DNA of 64,000 bases from assembly GCA_028714855.1 (NCBI GenBank), contig JAQTLP010000004.1:1-64000 (forward strand), read 5' to 3'. This DNA is from Phycisphaerae bacterium. GTDB lineage: Bacteria; Planctomycetota; Phycisphaerae; Sedimentisphaerales; Anaerobacaceae. The notes under the pieces were generated by a model. That model did not search any database and was not told where the DNA came from. It was given only the letters and a program-made list of their open reading frames with translations. A program made the translations under genes and the position numbers. This document shows, one piece after another, positions 37,038 to 56,902 of the stretch. Every line of letters begins with the position of its first letter. Position 1 is the first letter of the stretch.

Positions 37038-40000
37038 ATGAAGAGGCAGATCCTGGTCGGCTCGTTAATCCTGCTGTTCGCAGCGGCTTTGGCAATAGCA
37101 GACGATTCTTATAAGCCCGGCGCATTACTTGTGCGTTTTGCAAACCCCAAAGCTACTACACAAGCGAAGAATGCCGTTTTGAGCGCAATTTCCGGCAATC
37201 CTTCTACCAATGTAGTTAAAGAATACCGCATTGTCCCGGGGCTTGCACTTGTACAGCTTCCCACTGGTATGACAGTGAAGCAAATGCGTGTTTTTGCGGC
37301 CCTGTCTCCGGATATTCTTTATGCAGAGCCGGTCTACAAATGCAGAAAATCTGCTGTTCCTAATGATGCGCGGTTCTCCGACTTGTGGGGGCTGCATAAC
37401 ACGGGGCAGGAAGGCGGCACCGCCGACGCAGATATCGATGCGCCTGAGGCCTGGGATTTGGATACAGGAGACGGCAGTGTTGTTGTAGCGGTTATCGATT
37501 CTGGTGTTGATTATACACACTCAGACCTCGCAGCCAATATGTGGCACAACCCCGGCGAAATCCCCGGCAACGGTATTGATGATGACGGTTCTGGATTTAT
37601 AGATGATTATTACGGCTGCGACACTGGTTCTAATGATGCTAATCCAATGGATGACTCGGCAGATCCCGGCCACGGTACTCATGTTTCAGGTATTATTGGT
37701 GCGGTCGGCAACAATGGGATTGGGGTTACCGGCGTCTGCTGGAACGTCAAGATTATGGCCGTAAAAATCGCTGCCGATGATGGTACTCTCTATTACAATG
37801 CAGCTATCGATGGTATCGAGTATGCCGTAAGCAAAGGCGCCAAGGTTATAAATGCCTCCTGGTACCTCGACCCTTCCAGCGGGTTCCCGCAAGCCCTTTA
37901 CGATGCGATTGAGGCAGCAGAGAACGCCGGCGTTCTCTTTGTTACCGGCGCAGCAAATGACGATAGAAGCATTGACGCAATGCCTTATTACCCTGCAAGT
38001 TATACTCTGGATAATGTCATCTCGGTAATGGCAACTTCAAATATCGATGAAAAGGCATATTATTCCAATTTTGGTCTTATATCTGTAGACCTTGCCGCAC
38101 CAGGCGGGGAGCAATACGATGATGGTGACCCAAGGGGTATTCTGAGTACAATACCGGGTAACCAGTACGAATATTATCAAGGCACGTCAATGGCTGCTCC
38201 GTACGTTGCAGGAGCTTGTGCGTTACTTTGGACCGCTGACCCCAATCTGACCTACACTGATGTCAAGGGATTCCTGATGGATTATAGCGATCCGCTTGCG
38301 TCTCTAACGGGTCTTTGTGCTACCGGCGGGCGATTGAATTTATATAATTCGCTGCATGAGGTTCTGTTTGATTCTACTTCGCCGTTGCCCGACCCTGCTG
38401 AATGGGAGTTCGTGCCCCAGGCGACTGGTTTGCATACAATCATTATGCAGGCCAAAGAGGCAACCGACCACTCCGGAGTTGAGTACTATTTTGTGTGTAC
38501 AGATGTTGATTCGGGAGGTCCAAACCCTGCTTTCGACAGCGGCTGGCAGGATAGTACGTTGTATACTCGCAGCGATTTTACTGAGAACACAACATATACT
38601 TTCACGGTAAAATATCGTGATAAATCTGATAATCATAACGAAACTGCACCGTCGATAGCGAGATCTGCCGCAACTGCTAATGGTACAGATAATCTCCCTC
38701 CGTTTTCAAATCCGAGCCGATGGAAGATACGGCCTAAGGTGCAAAGGATTCGGCCGACTCCTCGCGTTGGTATGGAAGCCATGGCCTCTACCGATGAAAA
38801 CGGCCCGATAAGCTATTTTTTCACATGTGTGGATGTAGATGGTACAGGTCCTAACCCCGCTTTAGACAGCGGTTGGATTACAGCTATATATACAATATCA
38901 TCAGGGCTTAATGTAGGCAGCAGCTATACCTTCACGGTCAAAGCCAGAGATTTCTTGCTTAACGAGACCGCCGAGTCTGACCAGGCGACTGTAACGATAA
39001 GCAGCGAGGGTGGGAATTTACTTACTGTCCCGAGACCTTACACCACAATTCAGGATGCCGTTAACGCCGCAGTTGATGGGGATACTGTCGAGGTCAGGCC
39101 CGGCACATATACCGGTACCGGCAACCATGCCATAGACTTTGGAGGCCACAACATTATTGTACGAAGTATGGACCCCAACGACCCGGCTACGGTTGCAGCT
39201 ACGGTTATTGACTGTGGCTTTGAGAACAGGGCCTTTTATTTCCACCACGGTGAGGACCATAACTCGGTTGTTACCGGTTTTACAATCGTAAATGGCTTAG
39301 GTATGGATGATTCTGGCAATCCGTCCGATAACGGTTATGGCGGAGCCATAGCCTGTTTTAACGACAGTGAGCCTACAATTACAAAGTGCGTTATTATGAG
39401 TTGTTTTGCCGCGGGCAATAGCGGCAGCAACGGCGATCCCGGTGCCGATGGAGGGCCTGGTGCAAATGGTGATGATTACGATGCAACCAACGGCACCCCA
39501 GCAACCGACGGCGACGACGGCGGCGACGGCGGCGATGGCGGCGACGGCGACGATGGCGGTAGTGGTTTTGGCGGAGCGTTTTACTTCGATAGTGGAAGTC
39601 CGGAAATTCGACAGTGCAAAATTATCGCCTGTGGAGCCCTTGGCGGCAATGGCGGAACGGGCGGCGACGGCGGCAATGGCGGCGACGGCGGCACCGGCGG
39701 CAATGGAGGCAATAGCGCAGTCGGTGCCGGCGGCGGCGACGGCGGCGACGGCGGCAGAGGCGGCAGAGGCGGCGGCGGCGGTATTGCTTTAGGCGGTGCG
39801 ATGCACTTCGGCACTGCTTGCAGGCCCACAATTGTTGAGTGTGAAATTACAGGCTGCGGTGTCATAAATGGGGGAGGTGCTGCTGCCGGAAATGGCGGCG
39901 ACGGCGGAGATGGCGGCAACGGCGGAAATGGCACTACAGGCGGCCCCGGCGGCACCGGCGGCAACGGCGAAAACGGCGGATTTGCCGGGACAGATGGGCT

Positions 40001-43000
40001 GTCAGCAAGGGGTGGGGCTTTATACTATGCACAAGGCTGCGTTGTTACTATTGCGGACACCATAATCAGAGATAATACGCTTTTTATTAATGATAGTGGT
40101 ACTCACAGTGGCGGCGATGGCGGCAATGGCGGTAACGGCGGCAATGGCGGCGATGGCGACACTGGTGCTGGCCAATGCGGTTCCGGCGGCGATGGCGGCT
40201 ACGGTAGGATAGGCGGCGATGGCGGTGAAGTTGGTTCTGGTAGTGGTTCATGCAGCGGTGGTTTGGACAGACCGGATAATTCGGCTTATAACCAACTGAA
40301 TTCGACGGATGTTCGGGGAGGCGGTAATTATTATGGACCTGATTGTATAGTTGGTATTACCGCTTGCACGATAAGTGGTAATGATGCCGGCGGCCAGAAT
40401 TCCTTCGGCATAGTTGGTTGGGGAGGCGGCGAGTTTTATGAACGCAACTGCAATTCTGTATTTAATAATTGCAAAATAGAAGATAATAATGCGAGCGTTG
40501 ACGGGGGCGGGATTGATTTCAATTCCGTCAATGCCAGCGGCTCAGCGACGCTTAATTTCTGTGATATAACTGGAAACAGCGCCAGCGCGGGCGGCGGCAT
40601 CTTCGGCGGAAGTGTCTATGGGACTTTTACCATAAATATATCCGACAGTAATTTCCGCGAAAATGATGCGCTGTTCGGCGGCGGGATATATCTGGAAAGA
40701 ACAAACCTGACGATTGAGGATTCCATCTTAAGCGGCAACACAGCTTTTGAAGGCGCCGGAATGTGGAATTATGACTGTACAACGACGGTTAAAGGATGCT
40801 CCGTAAAGGAAAACGAGGCATCATTCGGCGGAGGATTTTCTTTAATCGAGTCCCGCGTTAGTATCGAAAACACTAATTTAACCGGCAATCAAGCCTCTTC
40901 TTCTTTTTATGGCACCGGCGGCGCGTTGTTTTTCGAAGGCTGGTCCGACGACCCGCATCAGATTACTAACTGTCTTATAACTGACAACAATGCATATGCA
41001 TATGGCGGAGGCGTGTCGATCAATCGCGGCTCATGGGTTCAAATTAACAACTGCACCCTTGTGGGAAATGATGTCATCGGCCCCGATGGCGTCGGCGGCG
41101 CCGTAAGCAATGCGGAATTTTGGGCCTGGGCCGAGATAGATAATAGTATTTTGTGGGGTAACCGGGCGGAAGCCGGCGGTTCTCAAATCGCAGTAGGAAA
41201 CCCCTTTGGTTCATATCCGTCTGGAGATGGTCGTTATGCAGATGTCTATGTCAGCAATTCCGATGTTCAGTACGGCGAAGGAGACGTCTGGCTGGAAGAT
41301 GAAACCCAAACATATACCGCTTTGTGGTGGCTGGGGGGTAATATTGATGAAGAGCCGTTGTTCGCCAGCACCAGGGCCGACGAGCAGACTTACTTTTTAA
41401 GCCAGATTGTTGCGGGACAGTTAAGCGATAGTAACTGTGTCGATGCCGGAGACGGCACCGCCAGTGCCCTTGACGCTATTATAGGGATACCGCTGACGAC
41501 TCGAACCGACCTTGTTGCTGATGCCAACACTAATGATATTGTTGATATGGGTTATCACTACCCGGCAAGTTCTGTTGTGCCGCAATACGAGTTTACAGTT
41601 GAGGTAGTGAACCAGGGGTATGGCACTTTCGGTACGGTTGATGTAAATTTGCCGCCTTTGATATTGGTGTCAGATGCTAATACATACGATGTCAACCAGG
41701 GCAGGGTAATAGAGCTTCGCGCAGAGCCGAACGATGGCTGGGAAGTTTATCAATGGACAGGGGCTGATTATCTCCCTGTGCATCCGACGGACCAGAATTA
41801 CAATACGGTAACGATGAATTCTGATAAGACGGTGACCATCGAATTCGGGCCTAAAAACGCGTATAAGTTGGTTACTCATGTCATTGGCGACGGCACGATA
41901 TCGCCGTCGGGTCTCAATACCTATTCTCCTGGCACTGTGGTAACTTTGAAAGCTACTCCTGCAAATCCTTCTCAGGTTGTTATATGGACAGGTACCGACG
42001 ACGACCTCTTAGACACGCAGTACAATACGGTAACTATGGATGCGCATAAGGAGGTTTTCGCTGAGTTTTATTCGCCGAGAACACTTTATGTCCCTGGTCA
42101 GTACCCGTCGATTCAGGCGGCCATCGATGATGCTGACGATAGGGATATAATCGAACTTAGTGCGGCGCCAGAGCCTTATTACACCCAGTTTGGTTTTGAA
42201 ATCTACGATAAGGCTATTACAATAACCAGCACCAATCCTGATGACCCGTGCTGTGTTGCTAATACGATTATTCAGATGGATGCCGGCGTGGGCGAAAATC
42301 GCGACACTATTTTCCGTTTTTATGGCGTAGAGCATAATACAATTCTGAATGGTCTTACAATTAGAGGATTTATTGGCGGGGGCTTTACCGCGGTTGCTGG
42401 CAGAGCATGCGATGATGTCAACGGTCCTGGATCTAACGGTGGAATGAATGCCGGAGGTGGGATATCTTGTTATGTAGCTTCACCGACCATTAAAAACTGC
42501 GTGATTTCCGATTGCACTATGATAGGCGACAATGGCGGCAATGGTTTCAACGGTTGCCAGGATTATCCCGATGGTTTTCCGGGTGGTTGGCCGGGAAGAG
42601 CCTACGGCGGCGGCGCGGCCCTTTTCTACAACAGCAGCCCAATCTTTATAAATTGCGTCTTTAGAAATAACAACGCTATTGGCGGCAATGGCGGTGATGG
42701 TGGAAGTGGCAATAGTGCAATCCCTGGGCCATGGGGACGTGGCGGCCCAGGCGGCGGCTGGTATTACGGGGAAGGCAGCTACTGGTATAATCACGACTGG
42801 CCGAATGGTGAGTATTGTGATGGGGGTGGGTGTTGGTTTGACCTGTACACTGAATACACCGGCCGCGGCGGTGCGGTATATGTCGGCCCGAGCTGCTCTC
42901 CGGAATTTATAGGTTGCACTTTTACCAATAATAAGAGCTTCAGCGGCACCAATGGGATTTGCGGTCAGGGCGGTAATCCGTATAGCGGTCGGGATGAACC

Positions 43001-46000
43001 GGCCAGCCGCTATAGGATAGATAACTCCGGCGGTGCGGTATATGTCGCCGGAGCCAGCACAGCGCAATTTATAGACTGTGTGTTCAATAACAACGCGGCC
43101 GATATCAATAACCTCCCGGATAGCAGCGACATGTTCGTTAGTTATGGCGGTGCAATTGCTTTTGAAGACGAGGCAGACCTTACCTTCGAAGGATGTACTT
43201 TCAATAACAATTTGGCAACAATTGGCGGCGGTATATATTCGAGCAATTCCAGCCCGCTGATTGGGGATTGTAACTTCCTGGCTAATTCAGCTTTCCACGG
43301 CGGCGGTGCGCTTTTAGTTAGCGGGACGGTCAATATTGACGGAACCAGTTTCAACGAAAACGAGGCAACAGTTACGGCCGGCCAGGGCGGCGGGTTATGT
43401 CTACTTGGCACAAATGCCGGAATTGTTGACTGCAATTTCGCTAATAACAGCACACGCGGCTCCGGCGGCGGAATCTATTTCTCCAATAAGAATGTCTTCG
43501 GTGAGGATATATCAGGAGACAATCAACTGCTTGTTAAAAACTGCCTGATAACAGGTAACTCTGCCAGCAGGGACGGCGGAGGTATTTCGTCAAATTGGTA
43601 CTCGGAGCCTAATATCGTCAATTGTACCATTGCTGACAACGTAGTTACAGGAGTCGGCTTTGAAGGCGGGTTTGGCGGTGGAGTATACTGTTCGTATAGC
43701 AGTTACGTTAATATCATTAACAGCATCCTATGGGGCAACTCGGGCAATATCGGTGTTCAAGGCTCACAGCTTGCCATTGCCACCGGTGTTCCGTACGACC
43801 CGAGGCTGTCAACAGTAAATGTCGCATATAGTGATATTCAGGATGCCAATGACCCGTGCGCGTTTGGCAGGACAGTAGAGGCGCTTGACCTTGTCTTCTG
43901 CATAGATACGACCGGCAGTATGGCTGATGATATCGATGCTGTTAAAGCTGCTGTAAATCAAATAACCAGCGCTATAGTAACTGAAGTTAATGATTACAGA
44001 ATCGCCGTGATGGACTATAGAGATTTTAATGAGACTCCATATGGTAGTGATGAGACTGATTACCCATACAGGGATGTTTTGGGTTTCACAACAGATACAA
44101 GTTTAGTAGCAAATGCGATTAATTCATTAACCGCTGCTGGTGGCGGTGATACACCTGAATCGGTCTATGCGGCCCTGATGGATTGTATCAACCATAACTC
44201 GCTGGCGGCGGCGCTTGGCGGCCAGTTGCACGGGGCCAGCCCCGCATCAACTGGACCGGGAGCCTGGCGGACAGGCGCAGGGGTGATGAGAGTAATTCTT
44301 CTTATGGGTGACGCTGAGCCTCATGACCCAGAGCCTTTTACGAATTATACGGTTGAAGATATTATCGCAGCGTCCAGCGGCAGTGATCCCGTACGCATCG
44401 TCTCGCTGATGGTTGGCGCAGATGTTAATGCGACCAATTATTTCGAAAGGTTGGCCGGCGAAACAGGTGGAACATTCATGCAGGCCGATAGCGCTGCAGA
44501 TGTAGTTGATGCGATGCTGAATGCGATTAACATGGTTTCACAGACCCCAGACCCCATCTTTGTTGATGTTAATTGCGTTCTTAACTGGACCGACGTCAAT
44601 CACAGATGGGACGCCAACAGTCATAATATCAATGCAGACCCCTGCTTTATTGCGGGTTATTATCTAAGTCAGGTCGCTGCCGGGCAGGATATAAACAGCC
44701 CGTGCATTAACGCAGGAAATGTTGATGCGAATGACCCGAATATCGGCCTTGATACCTACACGACCAGAACCGACAGTTTCCCTGACGTCAACGACCCCAA
44801 CTACCCTGACCCGAACAGCGCCATTGTAGATATGGGTTATCACTACAGGTTGTTCATAGCGCCGCGATACGAGTTACTCGTTACAGCCGATGAAGTTCCT
44901 GACCTTGACTCGGGGCAGCAGCCTGTGGTTGATCCTAACGGAGGGTCCTACTATCAGTACACTGTAGTGCATCTGAACGTCAGTCCAAATCCGCCGCCGT
45001 CTGGCTACCAGGTTTTGTGGACCGGTACGGACAATGATGGGCTTACCGGCACCGAGAACACGGTGCTGATGGATAGGAACAGGACGGGGACAGACAAGGT
45101 TACCGTGACGTTCGTGAGGAACGTCTGCGATTTGACGACCGGCGTAATTGGCTACGGCGGAACTATTATGCCCGCAGATGGTAATTATCCGCGCGGCGCA
45201 GTCGTAGTTCTTACTGCCTCTCCGAATGCAGGTTACAGAGTCAAACGGTGGATTGGGACGGATAATGACAATTCTACCTCCACAAATAACACCATTACTA
45301 TGAATGGTGACAAAACAGTTTCGGTTGAGTTCGAACAGCCCGTGACTATCACTGTTCCCGGCGACTTCTCATCACTTCAGCAGGCGCTGGACGCGGCCGA
45401 AGAGGGCGATACGGTCTTGATTGCTCCGGGCACTTACACTACTTCCACAGGTTACTATATTCACGATTCGAACATTATTATAAGCAGTATTGTTCCTGAG
45501 GACCCATGCGTTGTTGCCGCGACAACAATCGAAATGCAAATCGGAGATGAGGGCTACATCAGCACGAGCGCTTTCGCAATTTATAATGTAGGTCCTGAAA
45601 CAGTTCTTAACGGTATTACTATCAGAGGGTTTGTCCACCAGGCTTATAGTGGACTTCCTGGTGATGAATTGGGCGAGGATGGGTATAATGGTGCACACGC
45701 CTTCGGCGGTGGTATCATTTGCTATATGGCGTCTCCGACCATTAAAAACTGTAGATTTGTTGATTGCAGTGTTATTGGCGGAAACGGCGGCAACGGCTAT
45801 AACGGTAGCGGCAGCAACCCGGATGACCCCAATATTAACGGCACCGATGGCGGTTGGCCGGGCAGGGCTTACGGCGGTGGATTGGCCTGTCTCGTCGATA
45901 GCAGTCCATCCGTTATTAATTGCACTTTTGAAAATTGCACTGCAACGGGAGGTAATGGCGGCGATGGCGGCAACGGCGGTACTACCGAAGATTCCTACGG

Positions 46001-48545
46001 ACAAGGCGGACGCGGCGGCGGTTGGTATTACGGCGAGAGTAACCGAGAGTGGTATCGCCGCCCATGGGTCAACTCCAGTCAAGGTTATGAAAGATTTGGG
46101 CCTGCCATGAATAGCTTCTATGACTTTTACAACGAGTATTCAGGCCGAGGCGGTGCGGTGTTCATCGGTGAACAGTGCGCCCCGACATTTACTCATTGCA
46201 CTTTTATCAATAACCGAACCGAAGGCGGTACCTGCGGAATTACAGGCTTGGATGGCTGGCCGCCGCAGGATAGAGAGGAGCCCAGCATACACTGGGAAAT
46301 TGAGAACTTCGGCGGTGCGGTATTTTGTGAAGCAAACAGCACGCCGGTATTTACCGACTGCAACTTTGCGGGTAATACGGCTGACACCACCTATCTGGCC
46401 GACAACGACGACCCATTTGTAAGCTATGGCGGCGCTTTGGCTTGGGAAAAAGGTGCAGGTGTTGTCCTTGAGAGCTGTAAATTCAGCGACAATTTGGCAG
46501 CTATCGGCGGCGCAATGTATGGTTCCGATGCCGATGCCGAAATTACCGACTGCAACATCTCCGGCAACTTGGCATACCAGGGCGGTGGATTCTTCGGTGC
46601 CTCCGGCTCAGCGACAATACAAAAATGCATTGTCCATAACAACTTCGCCGGGATGGCAGAAAACAATGCAGGCGGACAAGGCGGTGGAATCTACAGCGCC
46701 TCTATGGCAGTTGAAATCTCCGATTCTAATATTTCTTACAATGAGGCCAACACCTCCGGCGGAGGCTTATTCTTAACAGGTGTCACGGGCTCACAAACTG
46801 TTATGAACTGCTTGATTACAGGTAATTTTGCTGGCAGAGACGGCGGCGGTATTTCGTCAAATTGGCATTCAGAGCCTAACATCGTCAATTGTACGATTGC
46901 AAACAACGTTGCTACTGGAATCGGCTTTGGCGCTGCATATGGCGGCGGAGTGTACTGTTCCTATGGAAATTACACCAATATAGTTAACAGTATTCTTTGG
47001 GGCAACTTAAGTCAAAATGGCCCACAGCTTGCTATCGGAACCGGCTTCGAATACGACCCGAGGCCTTCCACGGCGAGTGTTTCCTATAGTGATATTGAAG
47101 GTGGACAGTCAGGTATCTTTATTGACAGTGGTTGCACGCTCAACTGGTGGGGAGTCACAAACCTCCAGGCAGACCCATATTTCGTAACCGGGCCGCTGGG
47201 CAGCTACTATCTCAGTCAAATAGACACCAACGACCCCAATCAGACCGCTGACAGCCCCTGCGTTGAAGCCGGAAATGACCTGGCAAGCGATATCGGCTTG
47301 TCATACCCATATACCACACGTACCGATGAAGTATTTGATACGAATGTGGTAGATCTGGGCTATCATTACCTGCTTGCTCATCCGATAGAGTTCTGCAGTT
47401 TCTGTGACTTGTCCAACGACGGAGACGTTGATCTTGTTGACTTTGCGATATTCGCACTGTCCTGGCTTGACGATGGTTGCTCAAAGGACAACAACTGGTG
47501 CGACGGAGCCGACTTTACGTTTGATTCGTACGTTAACTTCGAAGACTTGAACTTATTCTACGAATGCTGGATTTCAGAAGATAATGAGGCTCCGCTTCCA
47601 AATCCGAGCAAGTGGAAGGTAGCGCCCCACTCGACTACTACAACGCCTCCTTATGAAATCAGCATGACAGCCGAACCTGCCTTTGACGCCTGGGGCGGAC
47701 TTGTCGAGTATTACTTCGAATGCGTCACCGGTAATGCCGACAGTAACGGTTGGGTCTCCAATACGACATACGTTATCACCGACCTCGACCCGAATACCAC
47801 ATATGGCTTCAGAGTAAAGGCTCGTGATGAAAGAGGCCACGAAACCCAGTGGTCGGCAATCGGTTATGCATCAACCGGCCAGGCGCCGGTAGAGGTAGAC
47901 ACCACTCCGCCTGAACCTCCTACTATGACCTGGGCTTCGCCGCCGGCGGCAGTGCCAGGAAGCTCAACTGCGATTACAATGACGGCAACGACCGCTACTG
48001 ACAGCAGCAATCCTGTAATGTATTATTTCGAATGTACCAGCAACGGCACCTTCACCAGTGCTTGGCAGATAAACACGACCTATTTGGCTACTGGTCTTGC
48101 TCCGAGTACTTTGTATACATTTACGGTTAAGGCTCGAGATAACGCTGGTCCCCCTAACGAAAACCTCCCGTCAGCCCCAGCTTCTGCGACCACTAATGCG
48201 GAAGAAGGACCGGTGGATAACCAAGCGCCGGGACCTGTGGCATGGCTAGTGGAGCCTTACGAAACCGGCAGCGGGTTCGATGCCAGGGTCTGGATGACAG
48301 CAGTAACAGCCACAGATGCGGGAGGTAACGGCGTGTGGTATCAATTCGAGTGTACCGATGTTTCAGGTCTCTATAGCGGTGATTGCGGAAATCTTACGGA
48401 TGGCTACAGCAGTGACTGGATAGCTGCACCGGAATGGAACAATATATGTATACATCTTGCTAATCAAGGCCACACCTTCCGCTTCAGGGTTCGTGATAAC
48501 CTTTGGAATGTAAGTGCTTGGTCGTCTACTCTGCCGGCTTTATAG
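37038..48545 (+). CDS. Giant secreted subtilase / beta-helix / vWA / dockerin / FN3 protein
   Basis: 3,835 residues in one frame. Residues 1-21 are a signal peptide. An S8 peptidase follows with an intact triad: D154 (VIDSGVDY), H212 (HGTHVSG) and S384 (GTSMAAP). Residues about 437-656 hold FN3-like segments. Three right-handed beta-helix blocks (about 661-1511, 1682-2271 and 2770-3451) have polymorphic-outer-membrane-type repeats (CxxTGNSA, GGGI). InlB-B-like repeats (WTGTDND, NTITMNGDKTVSVEF) separate them. A von Willebrand A domain is at about 2280-2503, with the metal motif DTTGSM at 2290. A dockerin-like EF-hand pair is at about 3452-3515 (DLSNDGDVDLVDF), and three FN3-like domains end the protein. 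There is no C-terminal anchor or PEP-CTERM signal. Glycine/aspartate-rich stretches fill the first helix. Probably a cell-surface or matrix protein. Confidence 0.9.
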   Translation: MKRQILVGSLILLFAAALAIADDSYKPGALLVRFANPKATTQAKNAVLSAISGNPSTNVVKEYRIVPGLALVQLPTGMTVKQMRVFAALSPDILYAEPVYKCRKSAVPNDARFSDLWGLHNTGQEGGTADADIDAPEAWDLDTGDGSVVVAVIDSGVDYTHSDLAANMWHNPGEIPGNGIDDDGSGFIDDYYGCDTGSNDANPMDDSADPGHGTHVSGIIGAVGNNGIGVTGVCWNVKIMAVKIAADDGTLYYNAAIDGIEYAVSKGAKVINASWYLDPSSGFPQALYDAIEAAENAGVLFVTGAANDDRSIDAMPYYPASYTLDNVISVMATSNIDEKAYYSNFGLISVDLAAPGGEQYDDGDPRGILSTIPGNQYEYYQGTSMAAPYVAGACALLWTADPNLTYTDVKGFLMDYSDPLASLTGLCATGGRLNLYNSLHEVLFDSTSPLPDPAEWEFVPQATGLHTIIMQAKEATDHSGVEYYFVCTDVDSGGPNPAFDSGWQDSTLYTRSDFTENTTYTFTVKYRDKSDNHNETAPSIARSAATANGTDNLPPFSNPSRWKIRPKVQRIRPTPRVGMEAMASTDENGPISYFFTCVDVDGTGPNPALDSGWITAIYTISSGLNVGSSYTFTVKARDFLLNETAESDQATVTISSEGGNLLTVPRPYTTIQDAVNAAVDGDTVEVRPGTYTGTGNHAIDFGGHNIIVRSMDPNDPATVAATVIDCGFENRAFYFHHGEDHNSVVTGFTIVNGLGMDDSGNPSDNGYGGAIACFNDSEPTITKCVIMSCFAAGNSGSNGDPGADGGPGANGDDYDATNGTPATDGDDGGDGGDGGDGDDGGSGFGGAFYFDSGSPEIRQCKIIACGALGGNGGTGGDGGNGGDGGTGGNGGNSAVGAGGGDGGDGGRGGRGGGGGIALGGAMHFGTACRPTIVECEITGCGVINGGGAAAGNGGDGGDGGNGGNGTTGGPGGTGGNGENGGFAGTDGLSARGGALYYAQGCVVTIADTIIRDNTLFINDSGTHSGGDGGNGGNGGNGGDGDTGAGQCGSGGDGGYGRIGGDGGEVGSGSGSCSGGLDRPDNSAYNQLNSTDVRGGGNYYGPDCIVGITACTISGNDAGGQNSFGIVGWGGGEFYERNCNSVFNNCKIEDNNASVDGGGIDFNSVNASGSATLNFCDITGNSASAGGGIFGGSVYGTFTINISDSNFRENDALFGGGIYLERTNLTIEDSILSGNTAFEGAGMWNYDCTTTVKGCSVKENEASFGGGFSLIESRVSIENTNLTGNQASSSFYGTGGALFFEGWSDDPHQITNCLITDNNAYAYGGGVSINRGSWVQINNCTLVGNDVIGPDGVGGAVSNAEFWAWAEIDNSILWGNRAEAGGSQIAVGNPFGSYPSGDGRYADVYVSNSDVQYGEGDVWLEDETQTYTALWWLGGNIDEEPLFASTRADEQTYFLSQIVAGQLSDSNCVDAGDGTASALDAIIGIPLTTRTDLVADANTNDIVDMGYHYPASSVVPQYEFTVEVVNQGYGTFGTVDVNLPPLILVSDANTYDVNQGRVIELRAEPNDGWEVYQWTGADYLPVHPTDQNYNTVTMNSDKTVTIEFGPKNAYKLVTHVIGDGTISPSGLNTYSPGTVVTLKATPANPSQVVIWTGTDDDLLDTQYNTVTMDAHKEVFAEFYSPRTLYVPGQYPSIQAAIDDADDRDIIELSAAPEPYYTQFGFEIYDKAITITSTNPDDPCCVANTIIQMDAGVGENRDTIFRFYGVEHNTILNGLTIRGFIGGGFTAVAGRACDDVNGPGSNGGMNAGGGISCYVASPTIKNCVISDCTMIGDNGGNGFNGCQDYPDGFPGGWPGRAYGGGAALFYNSSPIFINCVFRNNNAIGGNGGDGGSGNSAIPGPWGRGGPGGGWYYGEGSYWYNHDWPNGEYCDGGGCWFDLYTEYTGRGGAVYVGPSCSPEFIGCTFTNNKSFSGTNGICGQGGNPYSGRDEPASRYRIDNSGGAVYVAGASTAQFIDCVFNNNAADINNLPDSSDMFVSYGGAIAFEDEADLTFEGCTFNNNLATIGGGIYSSNSSPLIGDCNFLANSAFHGGGALLVSGTVNIDGTSFNENEATVTAGQGGGLCLLGTNAGIVDCNFANNSTRGSGGGIYFSNKNVFGEDISGDNQLLVKNCLITGNSASRDGGGISSNWYSEPNIVNCTIADNVVTGVGFEGGFGGGVYCSYSSYVNIINSILWGNSGNIGVQGSQLAIATGVPYDPRLSTVNVAYSDIQDANDPCAFGRTVEALDLVFCIDTTGSMADDIDAVKAAVNQITSAIVTEVNDYRIAVMDYRDFNETPYGSDETDYPYRDVLGFTTDTSLVANAINSLTAAGGGDTPESVYAALMDCINHNSLAAALGGQLHGASPASTGPGAWRTGAGVMRVILLMGDAEPHDPEPFTNYTVEDIIAASSGSDPVRIVSLMVGADVNATNYFERLAGETGGTFMQADSAADVVDAMLNAINMVSQTPDPIFVDVNCVLNWTDVNHRWDANSHNINADPCFIAGYYLSQVAAGQDINSPCINAGNVDANDPNIGLDTYTTRTDSFPDVNDPNYPDPNSAIVDMGYHYRLFIAPRYELLVTADEVPDLDSGQQPVVDPNGGSYYQYTVVHLNVSPNPPPSGYQVLWTGTDNDGLTGTENTVLMDRNRTGTDKVTVTFVRNVCDLTTGVIGYGGTIMPADGNYPRGAVVVLTASPNAGYRVKRWIGTDNDNSTSTNNTITMNGDKTVSVEFEQPVTITVPGDFSSLQQALDAAEEGDTVLIAPGTYTTSTGYYIHDSNIIISSIVPEDPCVVAATTIEMQIGDEGYISTSAFAIYNVGPETVLNGITIRGFVHQAYSGLPGDELGEDGYNGAHAFGGGIICYMASPTIKNCRFVDCSVIGGNGGNGYNGSGSNPDDPNINGTDGGWPGRAYGGGLACLVDSSPSVINCTFENCTATGGNGGDGGNGGTTEDSYGQGGRGGGWYYGESNREWYRRPWVNSSQGYERFGPAMNSFYDFYNEYSGRGGAVFIGEQCAPTFTHCTFINNRTEGGTCGITGLDGWPPQDREEPSIHWEIENFGGAVFCEANSTPVFTDCNFAGNTADTTYLADNDDPFVSYGGALAWEKGAGVVLESCKFSDNLAAIGGAMYGSDADAEITDCNISGNLAYQGGGFFGASGSATIQKCIVHNNFAGMAENNAGGQGGGIYSASMAVEISDSNISYNEANTSGGGLFLTGVTGSQTVMNCLITGNFAGRDGGGISSNWHSEPNIVNCTIANNVATGIGFGAAYGGGVYCSYGNYTNIVNSILWGNLSQNGPQLAIGTGFEYDPRPSTASVSYSDIEGGQSGIFIDSGCTLNWWGVTNLQADPYFVTGPLGSYYLSQIDTNDPNQTADSPCVEAGNDLASDIGLSYPYTTRTDEVFDTNVVDLGYHYLLAHPIEFCSFCDLSNDGDVDLVDFAIFALSWLDDGCSKDNNWCDGADFTFDSYVNFEDLNLFYECWISEDNEAPLPNPSKWKVAPHSTTTTPPYEISMTAEPAFDAWGGLVEYYFECVTGNADSNGWVSNTTYVITDLDPNTTYGFRVKARDERGHETQWSAIGYASTGQAPVEVDTTPPEPPTMTWASPPAAVPGSSTAITMTATTATDSSNPVMYYFECTSNGTFTSAWQINTTYLATGLAPSTLYTFTVKARDNAGPPNENLPSAPASATTNAEEGPVDNQAPGPVAWLVEPYETGSGFDARVWMTAVTATDAGGNGVWYQFECTDVSGLYSGDCGNLTDGYSSDWIAAPEWNNICIHLANQGHTFRFRVRDNLWNVSAWSSTLPAL
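39414..40250 (+). repeat. GGC-rich repeats coding Gly-Gly-Asn/Asp tracts
   Basis: Within the giant gene, four clusters (about 39414-39556, 39640-39780, 39890-39985 and 40105-40250) consist of near-repeats of GGCGGCGACGGC and GGCGGCAATGGC. They encode GGNGGDGGNGG-type sequences between beta-helix rungs. The 9-base period with varied third bases looks like slippage-prone expansion. Proline-rich open frames on the opposite strand are by-products. Confidence 0.85.
42082..43850 (+). repeat. Duplicated beta-helix unit, copy 1
   Basis: This part of the giant gene and 45346-47100 encode the same series of segments in the same order, including SPTIKNC, GGWPGRAYGGG, GGGWYYGE, RGGAV, FVSYGGA and SEPNIVNCTIA. 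Near 43573 and 46843 the DNA agrees for most positions over 60 bases, including silent sites. The duplication is therefore fairly recent. Confidence 0.85.
45346..47100 (+). repeat. Duplicated beta-helix unit, copy 2
   Basis: Partner of 42082-43850. In this copy the beta-helix runs straight into its ending (YSDIEGG, then SGCTLNWWGV and YYLSQI). In the first copy a vWA domain of about 220 residues separates the corresponding parts. Confidence 0.85.
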
Positions 48546-48570: not shown

Positions 48571-49902
48571 TTAGCCCGCAAAATTGGCCTTGAGCGTCTG
48601 ATAGCCGTAGTGTGCCAGCAGATGGTCGAGTATTACTATAGCTGTATAGTTCTCGGCGACAGGCCATATCCTCGCCACAATCGTGGGGTCACGCCTGGTA
48701 ATAGCCGCCAGTCCTTTGTTTTCGAGTGTATATTTGTCGATTGTCTTCTGTGGTTTGTCGATTGTCGGCGTCGGCTTGACCGCAAGTCTGACGACGATTG
48801 GTTGGCCTGTTGAAAGCCCGCCCGTAATCCCGCCGGCATTATTTGACTCGAAAGTAACCTTCCCCTTTTTCGCCTGCATCTGGTCGTTGGATTGGATGCC
48901 CGTCATATCTTTCACCGCAAAACCTGCGCCGACCTCTACGCCTTTAACGGCCCCGATACCTAACATCTTGCCTAATTCAGCATCGAGTTTATAGAAGACC
49001 GGCTCACCCAGACCTGTCGGCACGCCGGTCGCGACTATTTCAACTACGCCGCCGGATGAATCTCCTGTCTTGGTTATCTTGTTGCACGCTTTGACCATTT
49101 CCTCGGCAGCTTCGATATCCGGGCAGTTGACGACATAGTGCACGCCGTATTTCTCTTTGACCTTGCTGTCGCTCATCTTTGGTGCTTTGCTGCGAATAGC
49201 GTCGATTTCATTCTCGATTTGGGCAAATACAGCCGCCTTTTCCAAAAACCGCATATCCATATTTACCCTGCCTTTGACGTAGATTTCCTGGTAGAACGGG
49301 TCAAGGTCGTGCCGCATTTTTTTATACTGCTCGGTATAGGCAAAGGCCTTGTCGTGTGGGACATCGGGACAGCTGACACTTGCGAGTTCTTTCACGTATG
49401 AGAAGATTTCAATGCCGCATTTTTTCAGGATTTTTTTGGCTACATATCCGGCTGCGACAATAGTCGATGTATATCGTCCGCTGAATATGCCTGCACCGAT
49501 TGCGTCGTCATCAGGGCCGTACTTAATAAATGATGCGTATGATGCGTGCCCCGGCCTCGGCGTGCGGTTTGTGTCCTGATATTGCTCTATATGGACGAAA
49601 TGCCGGTCGAGGTTTGGAATCAGTATTGTCAGCGGCGTCCCGTTGGTGTGGTTTTTGTTTTTGGCTCCCGCAATAGTATCGGCGGCGTTCAGCCCGTTGT
49701 AAATAACCGGCAGGTCAGGCTCTTTTCGCGGGCTGCTCAATTCGTCGGCTCCCGGCTTTCTAAGCAGCAAATCGCCGTAAATCTCCTGCTCAGTTAGTAT
49801 CATCCCCGGCGGAACGCCCTGTATAACAGAAGTTAAACCTTCCTGGTAAGACCCGCCTGCCACCGTTACCTGAAACATCCGTCCTAAAGAGCAGCCAATC
49901 AT
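48571..49902 (-). CDS. aroC: Divergent chorismate synthase
   Basis: Chorismate synthase converts EPSP to chorismate using reduced FMN. The 443-residue protein aligns along its length: GRMFQVTVAGGSYQEG at the N terminus, TPRPGHASYASFIKYG, GVVEIVATGVPTGLGEPVF, AVKGVEVGAGFA and NNAGGITGGLSTGQPIVVR. Several signatures are changed. GESHG reads GGSYQ (residues 16-20), so the near-invariant His is Tyr19. RPGHAD has Ser121 for Asp, with His119 kept. GGRSSxRE reads GIFSGRYT. RHDP reads RRDP. An insert of about 80 residues (about 175-260) explains the extra length. Catalysis by the standard mechanism is therefore doubtful. AAGGAGAG precedes the ATG. It is downstream of aroA and ends 25 bases from the convergent giant gene. 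Confidence 0.8.
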   Translation of the reverse strand: MIGCSLGRMFQVTVAGGSYQEGLTSVIQGVPPGMILTEQEIYGDLLLRKPGADELSSPRKEPDLPVIYNGLNAADTIAGAKNKNHTNGTPLTILIPNLDRHFVHIEQYQDTNRTPRPGHASYASFIKYGPDDDAIGAGIFSGRYTSTIVAAGYVAKKILKKCGIEIFSYVKELASVSCPDVPHDKAFAYTEQYKKMRHDLDPFYQEIYVKGRVNMDMRFLEKAAVFAQIENEIDAIRSKAPKMSDSKVKEKYGVHYVVNCPDIEAAEEMVKACNKITKTGDSSGGVVEIVATGVPTGLGEPVFYKLDAELGKMLGIGAVKGVEVGAGFAVKDMTGIQSNDQMQAKKGKVTFESNNAGGITGGLSTGQPIVVRLAVKPTPTIDKPQKTIDKYTLENKGLAAITRRDPTIVARIWPVAENYTAIVILDHLLAHYGYQTLKANFAG

Positions 49903-49938
49903 TTTTCAAGCTCTCCTTAAAGTTACTAATAATTTGTC

Positions 49939-49958
49939 ATTCCTGCGCAAGCAGGAAT
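49939..49958. repeat. Palindromic repeat between aroA and aroC
   Basis: ATTCCTGC-GCAA-GCAGGAAT is a perfect 8-base stem with a 4-base loop. It is preceded by GTC and followed by CCAGAG, a form that occurs as a dispersed palindrome in many bacterial genomes. It lies in the 89-base gap inside the aroA-aroC pair and might stall or stabilise the shared mRNA. Confidence 0.65.
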
Positions 49959-49991
49959 CCAGAGTTAGAATCGAACTGAGGCAGTATAACC

Positions 49992-51251
49992 CTATTTATA
50001 GAAAACTTCAAACTTTTCCCAGAAGTCTGGGAATGATTTCGCTACGCACATCTCGTTTTCAATTGCTTGGTCGCCTGTCGCCAGTCCCGCAACAGCAAAA
50101 CTCATCGCAATCCTGTGGTCGTTATGCGGGTCTATCTGTGCGCCGTGTATCTTTCCGCCGCCCTTTATAATAAGCGAATTTTCATCGCACGCCGCCTCTG
50201 CGCCCATTTTCCCAAGCTCCGAAGCCATTACCGCCAGTCTGTCGCATTCCTTATTTCTCAAATGCCCTATATTCGTGAGCCTGCTTTCCCCCTTCGCAAA
50301 TGCGCACGCTATAGCTACTGGCGGAACCAAGTCCGGCAGGTCGCTCATGTCCTGCTCAATTGCGGTTAGTTTCCGCCCCGTGATGCAAATCCCATCATTT
50401 GTTTCTGATACCTCGCATCCCATCTGCTCCATCAGCGGGAGAAACGCCTTGTCCCCCTGTTTTGTGTCAGGCCGCAACCCCTTTACAGTAACTTTCGCTT
50501 TACAAATCGCCCCTGCCAGGAAGAAAAATGATGCGCTGCTGTAATCGCCTTCTATTGTTATCTCTCTCGCCGAATACCTTCCCTTCGGAATTTCTATCTG
50601 CTTGTAATTACTGTTTTTCGCCTTTATGCCGAACTCAGCCATCATTTGCAGACTGATGTCGAAATATGGCTTTTCCGTCATTTCATCGACGCATTTCAGC
50701 GTTACTTTCTTTTCCGCGTAAGGCGACGATATGACAATCGAGCTGAAATATTGTGAACATTCCCCGCCTCTTATCTGTGCTTGGCCGCCTTTAATCCCGC
50801 CGCCGTAAACTTTGATAGGCGGAAAACCTTCTTTGTCGAGATAATCTATCCTGCATCCTAATTGCCGCAGTCCCTCCACCACTTCTCCGATAGGCCTTTC
50901 GGTAATCCTTTTGCTCCCCGTGATAACTATCGGCTTGTCAGATAGATTGGCCGCCGAAGTTAGAAAATTCATCCCTACTCCGGATTCGCCTACGTTTAAT
51001 TCGTCTTTTACCGGCGTGTATTTTCCGCCTGTGCCTGTTACGGTTAGCTTATCACTTCCGGCTTCGATTTTTATGCCAAGCCGTTTCAGACACTCAATCA
51101 CATTTCGCTGGTCTTCGCCGAACAGAGGGTTGTAAATCGTGCATTCACCGGCACTTAGAGAGCTGATAATTAAGGCACGCAAGGTGTGTGCTTTGGATGG
51201 CGGAGCATCCACAGTAACATCAGTATTACGGATTTTATTTACGATTTTCAT
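49992..51251 (-). CDS. aroA: EPSP synthase, divergent
   Basis: 3-phosphoshikimate 1-carboxyvinyltransferase joins PEP to shikimate-3-phosphate. 419 residues, normal size. Kept: PPSKAHTLRAL (K20, R25), TERPIG (R119), DLPDLVPPVA, HLRNKECDRL, DPHNDHRIAM and VAKSFPDFW. Changed from the E. coli pattern: Ser23 is Ala21. N94-x-G-T97 is E89-S-G91-V92, in the loop that lines the PEP/glyphosate site. S169 is C165 (CSQ instead of SSQ). The PPSK-type opening resembles archaeal enzymes. With a divergent aroC next to it, a shifted or lineage-specific function is possible. The ordinary role is still the simplest reading. Confidence 0.85.
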   Translation of the reverse strand: MKIVNKIRNTDVTVDAPPSKAHTLRALIISSLSAGECTIYNPLFGEDQRNVIECLKRLGIKIEAGSDKLTVTGTGGKYTPVKDELNVGESGVGMNFLTSAANLSDKPIVITGSKRITERPIGEVVEGLRQLGCRIDYLDKEGFPPIKVYGGGIKGGQAQIRGGECSQYFSSIVISSPYAEKKVTLKCVDEMTEKPYFDISLQMMAEFGIKAKNSNYKQIEIPKGRYSAREITIEGDYSSASFFFLAGAICKAKVTVKGLRPDTKQGDKAFLPLMEQMGCEVSETNDGICITGRKLTAIEQDMSDLPDLVPPVAIACAFAKGESRLTNIGHLRNKECDRLAVMASELGKMGAEAACDENSLIIKGGGKIHGAQIDPHNDHRIAMSFAVAGLATGDQAIENEMCVAKSFPDFWEKFEVFYK

Positions 51252-51898: not shown

Positions 51899-53104
51899 CT
51901 AATCTTGTCCCGGCTCGGTGCTCTCCAGCCATTTGTCGGCGAATTCAGCAAAGTCGGCAAAGTCCTCTTTGCAGTCTTCATTTAAATCACCGGGCAAATG
52001 CAGCGCCCCTAAATCGCCGCAATGCCGCGGTATTTCAAGCGCCCTTGCCAAGTCCGCCACGTTAAGCCTGCCATCGACCTGTTCAACACCAGGATAATGG
52101 CCGTCGTAGCTGAACGAGCCATGCTCCATATAATGCAAAGCCATCTTAAAAGGAAAACTCACCGTTATGCCTAACTGTGGATTTGTTACCCCTCCCGGCC
52201 CCATAGGCATAGTTGCTCCGCAAATATCACATATGTGCGCCCCGTATTGCGGCCCCCACCATTTATATGTTTCACCCGGTAGGGCATCCTCTTCCCACGG
52301 CAATTCCTCGATAGCAGCAGCGCACTGTTTTGCCAGTTCAATTCCGTCGGGGATAAGGTCTTTGTCTTGGTCAGCGTCGTGTAGATTGTAACCCGCTGCA
52401 AGTTCCTCGCTGTCAGCTAAAAGGTCCCCATCGAGGTCGTTGGCGTCGGGGGCTAACTGGTTCGAGTCGACAACATAATTCAACGGCAACTGGTGCGCGT
52501 TGGGTTCATAAGGGTATCGCCGTTCAAGCGCCCTCATTAAAAGCGCTACATTAAGTCTTCCCTCGACAGGTTCAACGTAGTAACCGTCGTAGCTGAACGA
52601 GCCATGCTCCATATAATGCAGTGCCAGCTTAAAATCAAAACTCACCGTTATGCCTAACTTTGGATTTGTTACCCCTCCCGGCCCCATAACCACAGTTGCT
52701 CCGCAAATATCACATGTGTGCAGACCCATTTGCGGACTCCACCATTTATATGTTTCGTTCGGACCAGCTTCATTTTCCCACGGTAGGTTGTTGATATCAG
52801 TTGCGCAAAGTTTTGCTAATTCGACGCCGTCAGGTATTCCGTTGCGGTTCTCGTCAGCCTTGAATGCACGGTAGCCAATCGCAAGTTCTTCTTTATTGGC
52901 GAGCAAATCCGCGTCTGCATCCTGGCTGACAGGCAGTTCGTGCGGGTCAGGCGTATATGCAGCGAGGGCTTTATTTACCCCTGCAACTGACCCTAAAGCA
53001 ATTACAGCGGCGGTGCCGGCTGCAAGAGCGCGTTTCTTGAACCTTTCTTCCCGCTTAGATTGTTCTCTAATATGTCTTTGATGTGCCCTTCTTAACTTCC
53101 TCAT
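51899..53104 (-). CDS. Secreted protein with two CxxC repeats and a dockerin-like end
   Basis: A 401-residue secreted protein. After a basic start, hydrophobic residues about 27-47 resemble a Tat- or Sec-type signal ending near NKALAAY. Two tandem copies of a 161-residue unit follow. Each has a calcium-loop-like part (DLDGDLLADSEEL; DQDKDLIPDGIELAK), a Trp-rich YKWW segment, a CDICGA pair and ALHYMEHGSFSYDG. The C terminus (about 375-395) has GDLNEDCKEDFADFAEFADKW, a single dockerin-like half. The function is unknown. Such metal-rich secreted proteins are frequent in planctomycetes. AGGAGG precedes the ATG. Confidence 0.75.
   Translation of the reverse strand: MRKLRRAHQRHIREQSKREERFKKRALAAGTAAVIALGSVAGVNKALAAYTPDPHELPVSQDADADLLANKEELAIGYRAFKADENRNGIPDGVELAKLCATDINNLPWENEAGPNETYKWWSPQMGLHTCDICGATVVMGPGGVTNPKLGITVSFDFKLALHYMEHGSFSYDGYYVEPVEGRLNVALLMRALERRYPYEPNAHQLPLNYVVDSNQLAPDANDLDGDLLADSEELAAGYNLHDADQDKDLIPDGIELAKQCAAAIEELPWEEDALPGETYKWWGPQYGAHICDICGATMPMGPGGVTNPQLGITVSFPFKMALHYMEHGSFSYDGHYPGVEQVDGRLNVADLARALEIPRHCGDLGALHLPGDLNEDCKEDFADFAEFADKWLESTEPGQD
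52101..52270 (-). repeat. Tandem duplication within the CxxC protein gene, copy A
   Basis: These bases recur at 52584-52753, exactly 483 bases (161 codons) away, with only scattered substitutions. Stretches include GTAGCTGAACGAGCCATGCT and GTTACCCCTCCCGGCCCCAT. The close DNA match, including silent sites, marks a recent tandem duplication. Confidence 0.85.
52584..52753 (-). repeat. Tandem duplication within the CxxC protein gene, copy B
   Basis: Partner of 52101-52270. The flanking parts of each unit are less alike, so gene conversion or selection may keep the CDICGA-HYMEHG core uniform. Confidence 0.85.
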
Positions 53105-55411: not shown

Positions 55412-55939
55412 ATGAAAGTAATTTTGAATTCCGAACAAATCGAGCAGATTCTCAAGGATTTGACAAGCCGTATTATTTCCGAAACCCCGCCCGAATTGGC
55501 TCTTGCCGTAATTGGTATTCGCAGCAGAGGAGAGGTTCTCGCCCAGAGGCTGTCGGGCCGATTGTCGGAGGAGCTTGGCAGGGATGTTCCATGCGGGGTC
55601 CTCGACATCACACTTTACCGGGACGATTTAAATTCACCGCGCAGCGATGCTCAGCCACAGGTGCGAACTACTGAAATCGGTTTCGATATAGACGAAAAAA
55701 TAGTTATTTTAGTCGATGATGTTTTATATACGGGGCGCTCGACGCGCGCGGCGATGGATGCCCTTATAGATTTGGGCAGACCGAAGGCGATTAAATTGGC
55801 GGTGCTTGTTGACAGGGCGGGAAGGGAATTTCCGATACAGGCGGATTACGCCGGTTACAGAGCAGATGTTGAACCGGGCGAATCGGTGCAGGTTTTTCTT
55901 TCTGAATCGGACGGCAAGGAAGAAGTCGTTATCGGGTAG
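55412..55939 (+). CDS. pyrR: Pyrimidine regulator / uracil phosphoribosyltransferase PyrR
   Basis: PyrR binds pyr mRNA in response to UMP and UTP, and also makes UMP from uracil and PRPP. 175 residues, normal. The PRPP-binding loop is VILVDDVLYTGRSTRAAMDAL. AVIGIRSRGEVLAQRL, LDITLYRDDL and VDRAGREFPIQADYAG are PyrR-specific. It heads pyrR-pyrB-pyrC with a 3-base gap to pyrB. With no room for a leader terminator, control may be by blocking translation, as in some actinobacteria, or PyrR may act only as an enzyme (inference). Confidence 0.93.
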   Translation: MKVILNSEQIEQILKDLTSRIISETPPELALAVIGIRSRGEVLAQRLSGRLSEELGRDVPCGVLDITLYRDDLNSPRSDAQPQVRTTEIGFDIDEKIVILVDDVLYTGRSTRAAMDALIDLGRPKAIKLAVLVDRAGREFPIQADYAGYRADVEPGESVQVFLSESDGKEEVVIG

Positions 55940-55942
55940 ATT

Positions 55943-56902
55943 ATGGCGTTAATAAGAAAAAGTAAACAATTCCAGTGGCAGCACAAGCATTTACTTGGCT
56001 TACGAGATTTGAGCGCGGAGGAAATTACATATATTCTCGACACGGCCAAAGGTTTCGAGGTGATAAGCACGCGGTCGGTGAAAAAGGCGCCGCCTCTGCG
56101 TGGTAAGGTTGTCTGTAATCTGTTTTTTGAAGACAGCACGCGGACGCGAAACAGCTTTACCCTGGCGGCGAGCCGATTAAGCGCCGATGTTATAGAGTTT
56201 ACCGAGAAGGTTAGCTCTGTCAGTAAGGGCGAGACGCTTTTAGATACGGCCAGGAACCTGGAGGCGATGGGGATTGATATTGTTGTGATTCGGCATAATG
56301 CCGGCGGAGCGTCGAAATTCCTGAGCAGGAATATTAACGCTTGCGTAATAAACGCCGGCGACGGTTACTGCGAGCACCCCACACAGGGTCTTTTGGATGT
56401 TTATACCATTCGCAAACATAAAGGTACTCTCAAAGGTTTGAAGATAGCAATTGTCGGCGATATTGCCCACTCGCGCGTCGCCCGTAGCTGTATGTGGGCG
56501 ATGACAAAGCTCGGCGCCGAAGTGATATTCGTCGGCCCGCCGACGCTTATGCCGGCGCAGGTCGACAAGCTGCCGGTCAGTGTAAGCTATTCACTCGATG
56601 ATGTCATCGAAAAGGTTGACGTGATAAATATGCTTCGGATTCAGTTCGAGCGGCTCGGCGGCAATCCTTTTCCTTCGGTGCGGGAATACTCACATTATTT
56701 CGGCCTGACGGTGGAGCGTATGAAAAAAGCGAAACCCGATATTCTGGTTATGCACCCTGGGCCGATTAACAGGGGCCTTGAGATGGAAAGCGAGGTGGCC
56801 GACGGCTCGAACAGCGTTATCCTCGAACAGGTTACAAATGGTCTGGCTGTGAGAATGGCGGTCTTGTTCCTGGTCAATCAGGCGGCAGCAATACAAGGAT
56901 GA
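55943..56902 (+). CDS. pyrB: Aspartate carbamoyltransferase, catalytic chain
   Basis: Second step of UMP synthesis: carbamoyl phosphate plus aspartate gives carbamoyl aspartate. 319 residues. The carbamoyl-phosphate motif is FFEDSTRTRNSFTLAASRL. EKVSSVSKGETLLDT, HNAGGASKFL, EHPTQGLLDVYTI and VMHPGPINRGLEME are all present. No pyrI regulatory chain is nearby, so it is the unregulated type, probably a trimer or a complex with dihydroorotase, which is encoded next. Confidence 0.95.
   Translation: MALIRKSKQFQWQHKHLLGLRDLSAEEITYILDTAKGFEVISTRSVKKAPPLRGKVVCNLFFEDSTRTRNSFTLAASRLSADVIEFTEKVSSVSKGETLLDTARNLEAMGIDIVVIRHNAGGASKFLSRNINACVINAGDGYCEHPTQGLLDVYTIRKHKGTLKGLKIAIVGDIAHSRVARSCMWAMTKLGAEVIFVGPPTLMPAQVDKLPVSVSYSLDDVIEKVDVINMLRIQFERLGGNPFPSVREYSHYFGLTVERMKKAKPDILVMHPGPINRGLEMESEVADGSNSVILEQVTNGLAVRMAVLFLVNQAAAIQG

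What the first reader, a model, noticed from the sequence alone, without database searches (positions are those of the whole stretch)
48571..51251. aroA-aroC pair in which both enzymes have altered active-site signatures
The chorismate synthase has GGSYQ where GESHG is expected, so the near-invariant first His is Tyr19. Ser121 replaces Asp of RPGHAD, GGRSSxRE is lost, RRDP replaces RHDP, and there is an insert of about 80 residues. The neighbouring EPSP synthase keeps most charged ligands but changes three positions of the substrate pocket (Ala21, Glu89/Val92, Cys165 by E. coli comparison). Two consecutive pathway enzymes deviating together suggests a co-evolved variant. It could use a modified substrate, lack the normal flavin chemistry, or serve a specialised product, rather than being random drift. 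The fold signatures otherwise remain, so they are not pseudogenes.
Basis: partly seen in the sequence, partly recalled or inferred. Interest (0 to 1): 0.7.

Follow-up and report, generated by a model that had tools for sequence, protein, structure and literature searches.

The report
Chorismate synthase lacking its hallmark histidine
The window holds a real and widespread subfamily of chorismate synthase, the last enzyme of the shikimate pathway, in which a histidine described as present in all known species is always a tyrosine; it is this genome's only such enzyme and most likely still makes chorismate, but no known shikimate kinase could be found in the genome, which leaves its exact substrate open.

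Summary
The AroC (48571-49902, minus strand) has Tyr19 where chorismate synthases have His, plus RPGHAS, GAGIFSGRYT, RRDP and a helical insert. It is the genome's only AroC, next to its only AroA. This is a conserved clade: 42 of 60 family genomes have this AroC alone, and all 80 named loci, in at least five other phylum labels too, keep Tyr19. The other catalytic residues, the five EPSP-binding arginines and the fold are retained, so a working FMN-dependent chorismate synthase is most likely. The proposed co-evolution with AroA fails: a sister species with 89% identical AroC has a 33% identical AroA with an ordinary pocket. Two facts stay unexplained. No shikimate kinase is recognisable in this 98%-complete genome or in most relatives with only this AroC, whereas every canonical AroC of the family is fused to one. 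Every AroA partner checked has Glu where E. coli has Ser197, a phosphate contact of shikimate-3-phosphate (from memory). An unknown kinase is the simple reading; a route without phosphorylation is not excluded.

The parts
48571..49902 (-). aroC variant: chorismate synthase of the Tyr19 / RRDP / insert subfamily (443 aa)
   Evidence: PF01264 320.6 bits, cut-off 27; TIGR00033 328.4, cut-off 212.2; AF2 model matches chorismate synthases, Z 33.0 to 7rca and 30.3 to 1qxo
49846..49848 (-). codon of Tyr19, where canonical enzymes have His (N. crassa His17, M. tuberculosis His11)
   Evidence: alignment to PDB chains; Tyr in all 80 named loci; codon position
49135..49362 (-). helical insert, residues about 181-256, absent from canonical AroC
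   Evidence: AF2 secondary structure, mostly high pLDDT; BLASTP against the canonical relative
48688..48693 (-). Arg404-Asp405 of RRDP; Asp405 is the retained catalytic aspartate, Arg404 replaces His
   Evidence: role of the Asp from PMC3509576
49992..51251 (-). aroA: EPSP synthase, 'group 1' (Ala21, Glu89, Val92, Asn95, Glu193), upstream neighbour of aroC
   Evidence: TIGR01356 415.6 bits, cut-off 287.25; pocket residues compared
49903..49991 (-). 89-bp gap between aroA and aroC; an aroA upstream of this aroC is found in 52 of 80 named loci
   Evidence: no promoter excess in the region

Best explanation
The window's aroC encodes a working, reduced-FMN-dependent chorismate synthase of a distinct clade in which the first active-site histidine is tyrosine, RHDP is RRDP and a helical insert has been added. 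It is this organism's only enzyme for the last step of the shikimate pathway and turns EPSP, made by the neighbouring AroA, into chorismate. Shown: single copy, intact, strongly conserved, chorismate synthase fold (predicted model), retained His119, Asp405 and all five EPSP-binding arginines, and chorismate-using enzymes in the genome. Inferred: that it binds FMN, that its substrate is EPSP, and that Tyr19 and/or Arg404 take over the part usually given to the lost histidine (protonating the leaving phosphate). The AroA is an EPSP synthase of a different type, swapped into the same operon slot, and is not specifically tuned to this AroC. The kinase that makes shikimate-3-phosphate would be one of a type not recognised here.
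For: Only PF01264 match in a 98.3%-complete genome. 42 of 48 family genomes with any AroC have only this form (tallied). Two chorismate-binding enzymes in G000 and at least one in 58 of 60 family genomes. The rest of the route is present: ADH synthase and 3-dehydroquinate synthase II side by side, next to an aroD::aroE fusion. Passes the TIGR00033, NF003793 and PF01264 cut-offs. CS fold, Z 26-33 to every CS entry against under 4 for anything else. Arg48, Arg116, Arg143, Arg403, Arg411, His119 and Asp405 are invariant in A2, which holds 44 variants and one canonical enzyme; in the P. brasiliensis enzyme the matching arginines bind EPSP, two of them its phosphate (PMC11633415), and Asp mutation costs 300-600-fold while the second-His mutation costs 20-fold (PMC3509576). 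One well-supported clade with a long stem and short crown. Neighbouring chorismate mutase/prephenate dehydratase in L113.
Against: No shikimate kinase: no PF01202 match in G000, no archaeal-type kinase over cut-off in any of the 60 genomes, nothing found by local searches of nearly the whole genome beyond IspE, (d)CMP kinase, common P-loop kinases and an unclassified GHMP kinase. Glu at the Ser197 position of every AroA partner checked. Four family genomes keep both AroC forms, which needs a reason if the two are equivalent. No biochemical data.
Confidence: 0.72

Rival explanations
1. Kinase-free or re-ordered end of the pathway: these AroAs act on unphosphorylated shikimate, giving 5-enolpyruvylshikimate. 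The variant AroC then eliminates water (or another group) to give chorismate; in relatives with the AroK::AroC fusion, the fused kinase would phosphorylate after AroA, handing EPSP to its own AroC domain.
For: No recognisable shikimate kinase in G000 or in 35 of 42 variant-only genomes; the six stand-alone SKI genes scanned with models match homoserine kinase best, and of the ten displayed sequences only G022's looks like a true shikimate kinase. All six canonical AroCs of the family are AroK::AroC fusions. Glu at the Ser197 position in 8 of 8 group-1 and 45 of 45 group-2 AroAs, and Asp at the Ser169 position too in L104 and L112. The histidine assigned to protonating the leaving phosphate is the one lost (PMC2386126). 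L154 has Tyr and RRDP without the insert, beside an AroA with Glu197.
Against: The two arginines that match the EPSP phosphate binders (Arg143, Arg403) are invariant in the variant. AroAs with Glu197 also occur in genomes where only a canonical AroK::AroC was found (G029, G045). Enzymes of unknown type do fill such gaps in amino acid pathways (PMC5764234). Loss of hydroxide without activation is chemically hard.
Confidence: 0.12
2. The variant AroC acts on a different substrate for a specialised product, and chorismate is made by an unrelated enzyme or taken up.
For: Some relatives keep both a canonical AroK::AroC and the variant side by side (L108, L111, L128).
Against: In 42 family genomes it is the only AroC although chorismate-using enzymes are present. 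No biosynthetic cluster was seen around it; the recurring neighbour is aroA.
Confidence: 0.08
3. One reading: AroA and AroC diverged together as a co-evolved pair.
For: The two genes are neighbours and both differ from E. coli.
Against: The same AroC sits beside group-1 AroA in 7 loci, group-2 in 42 and other types in 5; same-genus genomes share AroC at 88.6% but AroA at 33.4% identity.
Confidence: 0.04
4. Decaying genes or an artefact of assembly.
For: None found.
Against: Intact ORFs and strong conservation in about a hundred loci from independent assemblies.
Confidence: 0.01

Closest known systems
Canonical chorismate synthase AroC (EC 4.2.3.5; PF01264, TIGR00033; structures 1QXO, 2O12, 1UM0, 7RCA)
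   Same: Fold, second active-site His, catalytic Asp, five EPSP-binding Arg, passes curated cut-offs
   Different: First active-site His is Tyr; GGGRSSxRE is GAGIFSGRYT; RHDP is RRDP; about 65-residue helical insert; not fused to AroK as all canonical copies of its family are
L154 AroC (genome G219, same phylum)
   Same: Has GESYG (Tyr) and RRDP, beside an AroA with Glu at position 197
   Different: No insert; keeps GAGRASGRE; RPGHAE; long branch, one genome of 61% completeness
AroK::AroC fusion of Phycisphaerae relatives (L108, L111, L128, L004-L006, L009)
   Same: Lies in the same operon just before the variant in L108, L111 and L128
   Different: Canonical signatures and an N-terminal shikimate-kinase-like domain
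EPSP synthase AroA (TIGR01356; E. coli 1G6S)
   Same: Catalytic Lys22, Arg27, Arg124, Gln171, Asp313, Glu341, Arg344, Arg386, Lys411 kept
   Different: Ser23 is Ala, Asn94 is Glu, Thr97 is Val, Arg100 is Asn, Ser197 is Glu, Asn336 is His

Membership tests
Chorismate synthase (PF01264 / TIGR00033) | Score above the curated cut-off | tested here: met
   PF01264 320.6 against 27; TIGR00033 328.4 against 212.2; NF003793 328.9 against 321
Chorismate synthase (PF01264 / TIGR00033) | Chorismate synthase fold | tested here: met
   AF2 model pLDDT 81.7, pTM 0.87; Z 33.0 to 7rca, 30.3 to 1qxo, next fold under 4
Chorismate synthase (PF01264 / TIGR00033) | First active-site His of G-E-S-H-G (described as present in all known species, PMC2386126) | tested here: not met
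   Tyr19 in the window and in all 80 named loci. A signature exception, so it is filed as a variant, not an ordinary member
Chorismate synthase (PF01264 / TIGR00033) | Second active-site His (N. crassa His106) and catalytic Asp (Asp367) | tested here: met
   His119 and Asp405 invariant
Chorismate synthase (PF01264 / TIGR00033) | EPSP-binding Arg residues (P. brasiliensis R46, R103, R129, R354, R362) | tested here: met
   By alignment Arg48, Arg116, Arg143, Arg403, Arg411, all invariant
Chorismate synthase (PF01264 / TIGR00033) | Turns EPSP into chorismate with reduced FMN | not testable with these tools
   needs enzyme assay or complementation
EPSP synthase (TIGR01356) | Score above the curated cut-off | tested here: met
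   415.6 against 287.25
EPSP synthase (TIGR01356) | PEP-site residues (E. coli K22, R124, Q171, E341, R344, R386, K411) | tested here: met
   all kept in P0002
EPSP synthase (TIGR01356) | Shikimate-3-phosphate pocket (S23, R27, S169, S170, S197, D313, N336, K340; list from memory of UniProt P0A6D3) | tested here: inconclusive
   R27, S170, D313, K340 kept; S23A, S169C, S197E, N336H changed. Pocket residues do vary between EPSP synthase classes, and what these changes do to specificity cannot be told from sequence
EPSP synthase (TIGR01356) | Uses shikimate-3-phosphate and PEP | not testable with these tools
   needs enzyme assay

The most novel reading that the evidence does not exclude
The end of the shikimate pathway runs without phosphorylated shikimate in these bacteria: an AroA with an acidic residue in the phosphate pocket makes 5-enolpyruvylshikimate, and the Tyr-type AroC turns it directly into chorismate. 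This would explain at once the missing kinase, the Glu at position 197 of AroA and the lost leaving-group histidine.
Probability: 0.1. Interest if true: 0.92.

Novelty: new variant of a known kind. Interest (0 to 1): 0.5.

Why it matters
Chorismate synthase is a drug-target enzyme with an unusual flavin mechanism, and one part of that mechanism rests on a histidine described as universal. Here a whole natural clade has done without it, apparently as the sole enzyme in many bacteria, so the proposed role of that histidine can be tested with evolution's own mutant. The missing shikimate kinase makes a second question directly testable: who activates shikimate in these organisms, or whether it is activated at all.

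Tried and rejected
A canonical second aroC in the genome: none. DHQ synthase AroB in G000: absent, replaced by the ADH synthase / DHQS-II route. Stand-alone PF01202 genes of relatives as shikimate kinases: the six scanned with models match the Desulfovibrio homoserine kinase model best (178-196 bits, just under its 197 cut-off, against 103-118 for shikimate kinase models); L185, L187 and L188 look the same by eye; only G022's L183 looks like a real shikimate kinase; G014, G018, G052 and G056 were not read. Archaeal-type shikimate kinase: none of 60 genomes over cut-off, and the G000 hit is IspE. A kinase gene between aroA and aroC: none recognised in the loci inspected. Literature on this variant: no held paper joins chorismate synthase with Phycisphaerae, and the hits for Planctomycetes and Lentisphaerae are incidental; most subscription papers, including the original His mutagenesis paper, are not held. 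That position 197 contacts the phosphate is from memory; no held paper naming it was found.

Full report
What is there. The window lies in a 2.31-Mb, 98.3%-complete genome whose relatives are named Sedimentisphaerales and other Phycisphaerae. On the minus strand, aroA (49992-51251, 419 aa) is followed after 89 bp by aroC (48571-49902, 443 aa). The genome has one PF01264 gene, and two PF00275 genes of which only one is an AroA; the other was taken to be MurA from its low similarity and was not scanned. Both window proteins pass the curated cut-offs for chorismate synthase and EPSP synthase.

The signatures. Tyr19 takes the place of the first active-site histidine, RPGHAD is RPGHAS, GGGRSSxRE is GAGIFSGRYT, RHDP is RRDP, and there is a helical insert at about 181-256 plus a shorter insertion near 75-84. 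Against that, His119, Asp405 and Arg48, Arg116, Arg143, Arg403 and Arg411 are invariant in an alignment of 44 variants and one canonical enzyme. By alignment these arginines match the five that hold EPSP in the P. brasiliensis enzyme (PMC11633415). The aspartate is the residue whose mutation costs 300-600-fold, and the second histidine costs about 20-fold (PMC3509576). The lost histidine is the one proposed to protonate the leaving phosphate, and it was described as present in all known species (PMC2386126).

The AlphaFold model (pLDDT 81.7, pTM 0.87) has the chorismate synthase fold, with Z of 26 to 33 to every chorismate synthase entry and under 4 to anything else.

A clade, not drift. In 60 sampled genomes of the family, 42 have only the variant, 4 have the variant and a canonical AroC (one variant copy, in G024, is only a fragment at a contig end), 2 have only a canonical one, and 12 have none found, mostly incomplete assemblies (tallied). 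A scan of named genomes gave 272 relatives. The best 80 all carry G[GA]SYQ, although the search patterns did not include that stretch; they include records labelled Lentisphaerota, Omnitrophota, Ratteibacteria, Fibrobacterota and Armatimonadota, and MAG labels can be wrong. In a tree of 47 sequences the variant is one fully supported clade with a very long stem (2.96) and short inner branches, which fits one remodelling followed by strong constraint and spread between lineages.

The AroC in L154 has GESYG and RRDP but no insert. A supported branch (100/97) puts it on the variant's side of the remaining canonical sequences, so the Tyr and RRDP changes may have come before the insert. It is a single long-branched sequence from a 61%-complete genome.

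The pair. The AroA beside the variant is of three kinds: group 1 as in the window (7 of 54), group 2 (42), others (5). The same-genus genome G015 makes the point: AroC 88.6% identical, AroA 33.4% identical, in the same operon slot. AroA was exchanged while AroC stayed.

The pathway. The genome has the archaeal-type entry, with ADH synthase and 3-dehydroquinate synthase II side by side next to an aroD::aroE fusion, no AroB, and two chorismate-binding enzymes. So shikimate is made and chorismate is used. The shikimate kinase, however, is missing: no PF01202 match, no archaeal-type kinase above cut-off, and a local search of nearly the whole genome found only IspE, a (d)CMP kinase, common P-loop kinases and one unclassified GHMP kinase. 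In the family, all six canonical AroCs are fused to a shikimate-kinase-like domain. The six stand-alone PF01202 genes scanned match the Desulfovibrio-type homoserine kinase best (that activity was shown in PMC5764234). One variant-only genome, G022, has a shikimate kinase of its own. The link of AroK to canonical AroC is largely the fusion itself, so the Fisher value should not be read as independent events; the telling fact is that 35 of 42 variant-only genomes have no PF01202-like gene at all.

A further common feature. Every AroA partner checked has Glu at the position of E. coli Ser197, and two also have Asp at Ser169. From memory, Ser169, Ser170 and Ser197 contact the phosphate of shikimate-3-phosphate. 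Glu197 is also present in genomes where only AroK::AroC was found (G029, G045), and Ser in one genome with an unfused canonical AroC (L162), so the link to the variant is not clean. In group 2 the placing of this Glu rests on the ungapped family alignment; pairwise alignment to E. coli alone puts Asn at 197 and the Glu one position on.

Interpretation. The simplest account is a functional, FMN-dependent chorismate synthase working on EPSP, with an unrecognised kinase supplying shikimate-3-phosphate; the two conserved phosphate-binding arginines speak for it. A route without phosphorylation, or with phosphorylation after AroA by the kinase fused to AroC, would explain the missing kinase, Glu197, the fusion of two otherwise non-consecutive enzymes and the lost leaving-group acid together, but it conflicts with those arginines and has no direct evidence. 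It is kept as the novel case at about 0.1. The mechanism by which Tyr19 or Arg404 would replace the histidine is inference only.

Noticed in passing
G000:C7, L175:5898-9441: Archaeal-type entry to the shikimate pathway in a planctomycete: ADH synthase and 3-dehydroquinate synthase II adjacent, divergent from an aroD::aroE fusion; no AroB in the genome.
   Followed up: yes
L108:6278-7858, L111, L128, L004-L006, L009: Canonical AroC of Phycisphaerae relatives is fused to an N-terminal shikimate-kinase-like domain, two enzymes that are not consecutive in the textbook pathway.
   Followed up: partly
L154:1000-2150: AroC with GESYG and RRDP but without the insert, a possible intermediate of the Tyr-type clade.
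   Followed up: partly
L104:207-1490, L112:6635-7930: AroA partners of the variant with Asp at the Ser169 and Glu at the Ser197 position (E. coli numbering): two acidic residues where E. coli contacts phosphate.
   Followed up: no
window 37038-48545: Giant 3835-aa secreted S8-protease-like and Gly/Asn-rich repeat protein, convergent with aroC; large ORFs grouped with it by similarity recur near the variant aroC in relatives.
   Followed up: no
L071:6849-7262, L113:2592-3020, L141:5272-5679, L142:5184-5552: Outside the family, a small conserved protein (TKGQIEAEISEAIIKFEKEYMGRGP...) recurs near the variant aroC, in some loci with a PEP-carboxykinase-like gene.
   Followed up: no
window 55412-56902: pyrR-pyrB pair; ORF clusters with the same proteins recur in 13-14 of the related loci.
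   Followed up: no
window 51899-53104: 401-aa protein with an internal duplication (two copies of a CDICGAT.MGPGGVTNP.LGITVSF block), unnamed.
   Followed up: no
G000:C7:138307-139323: Unclassified GHMP kinase (best mevalonate-kinase-like, far below cut-off), the only GHMP kinase found besides IspE.
   Followed up: partly
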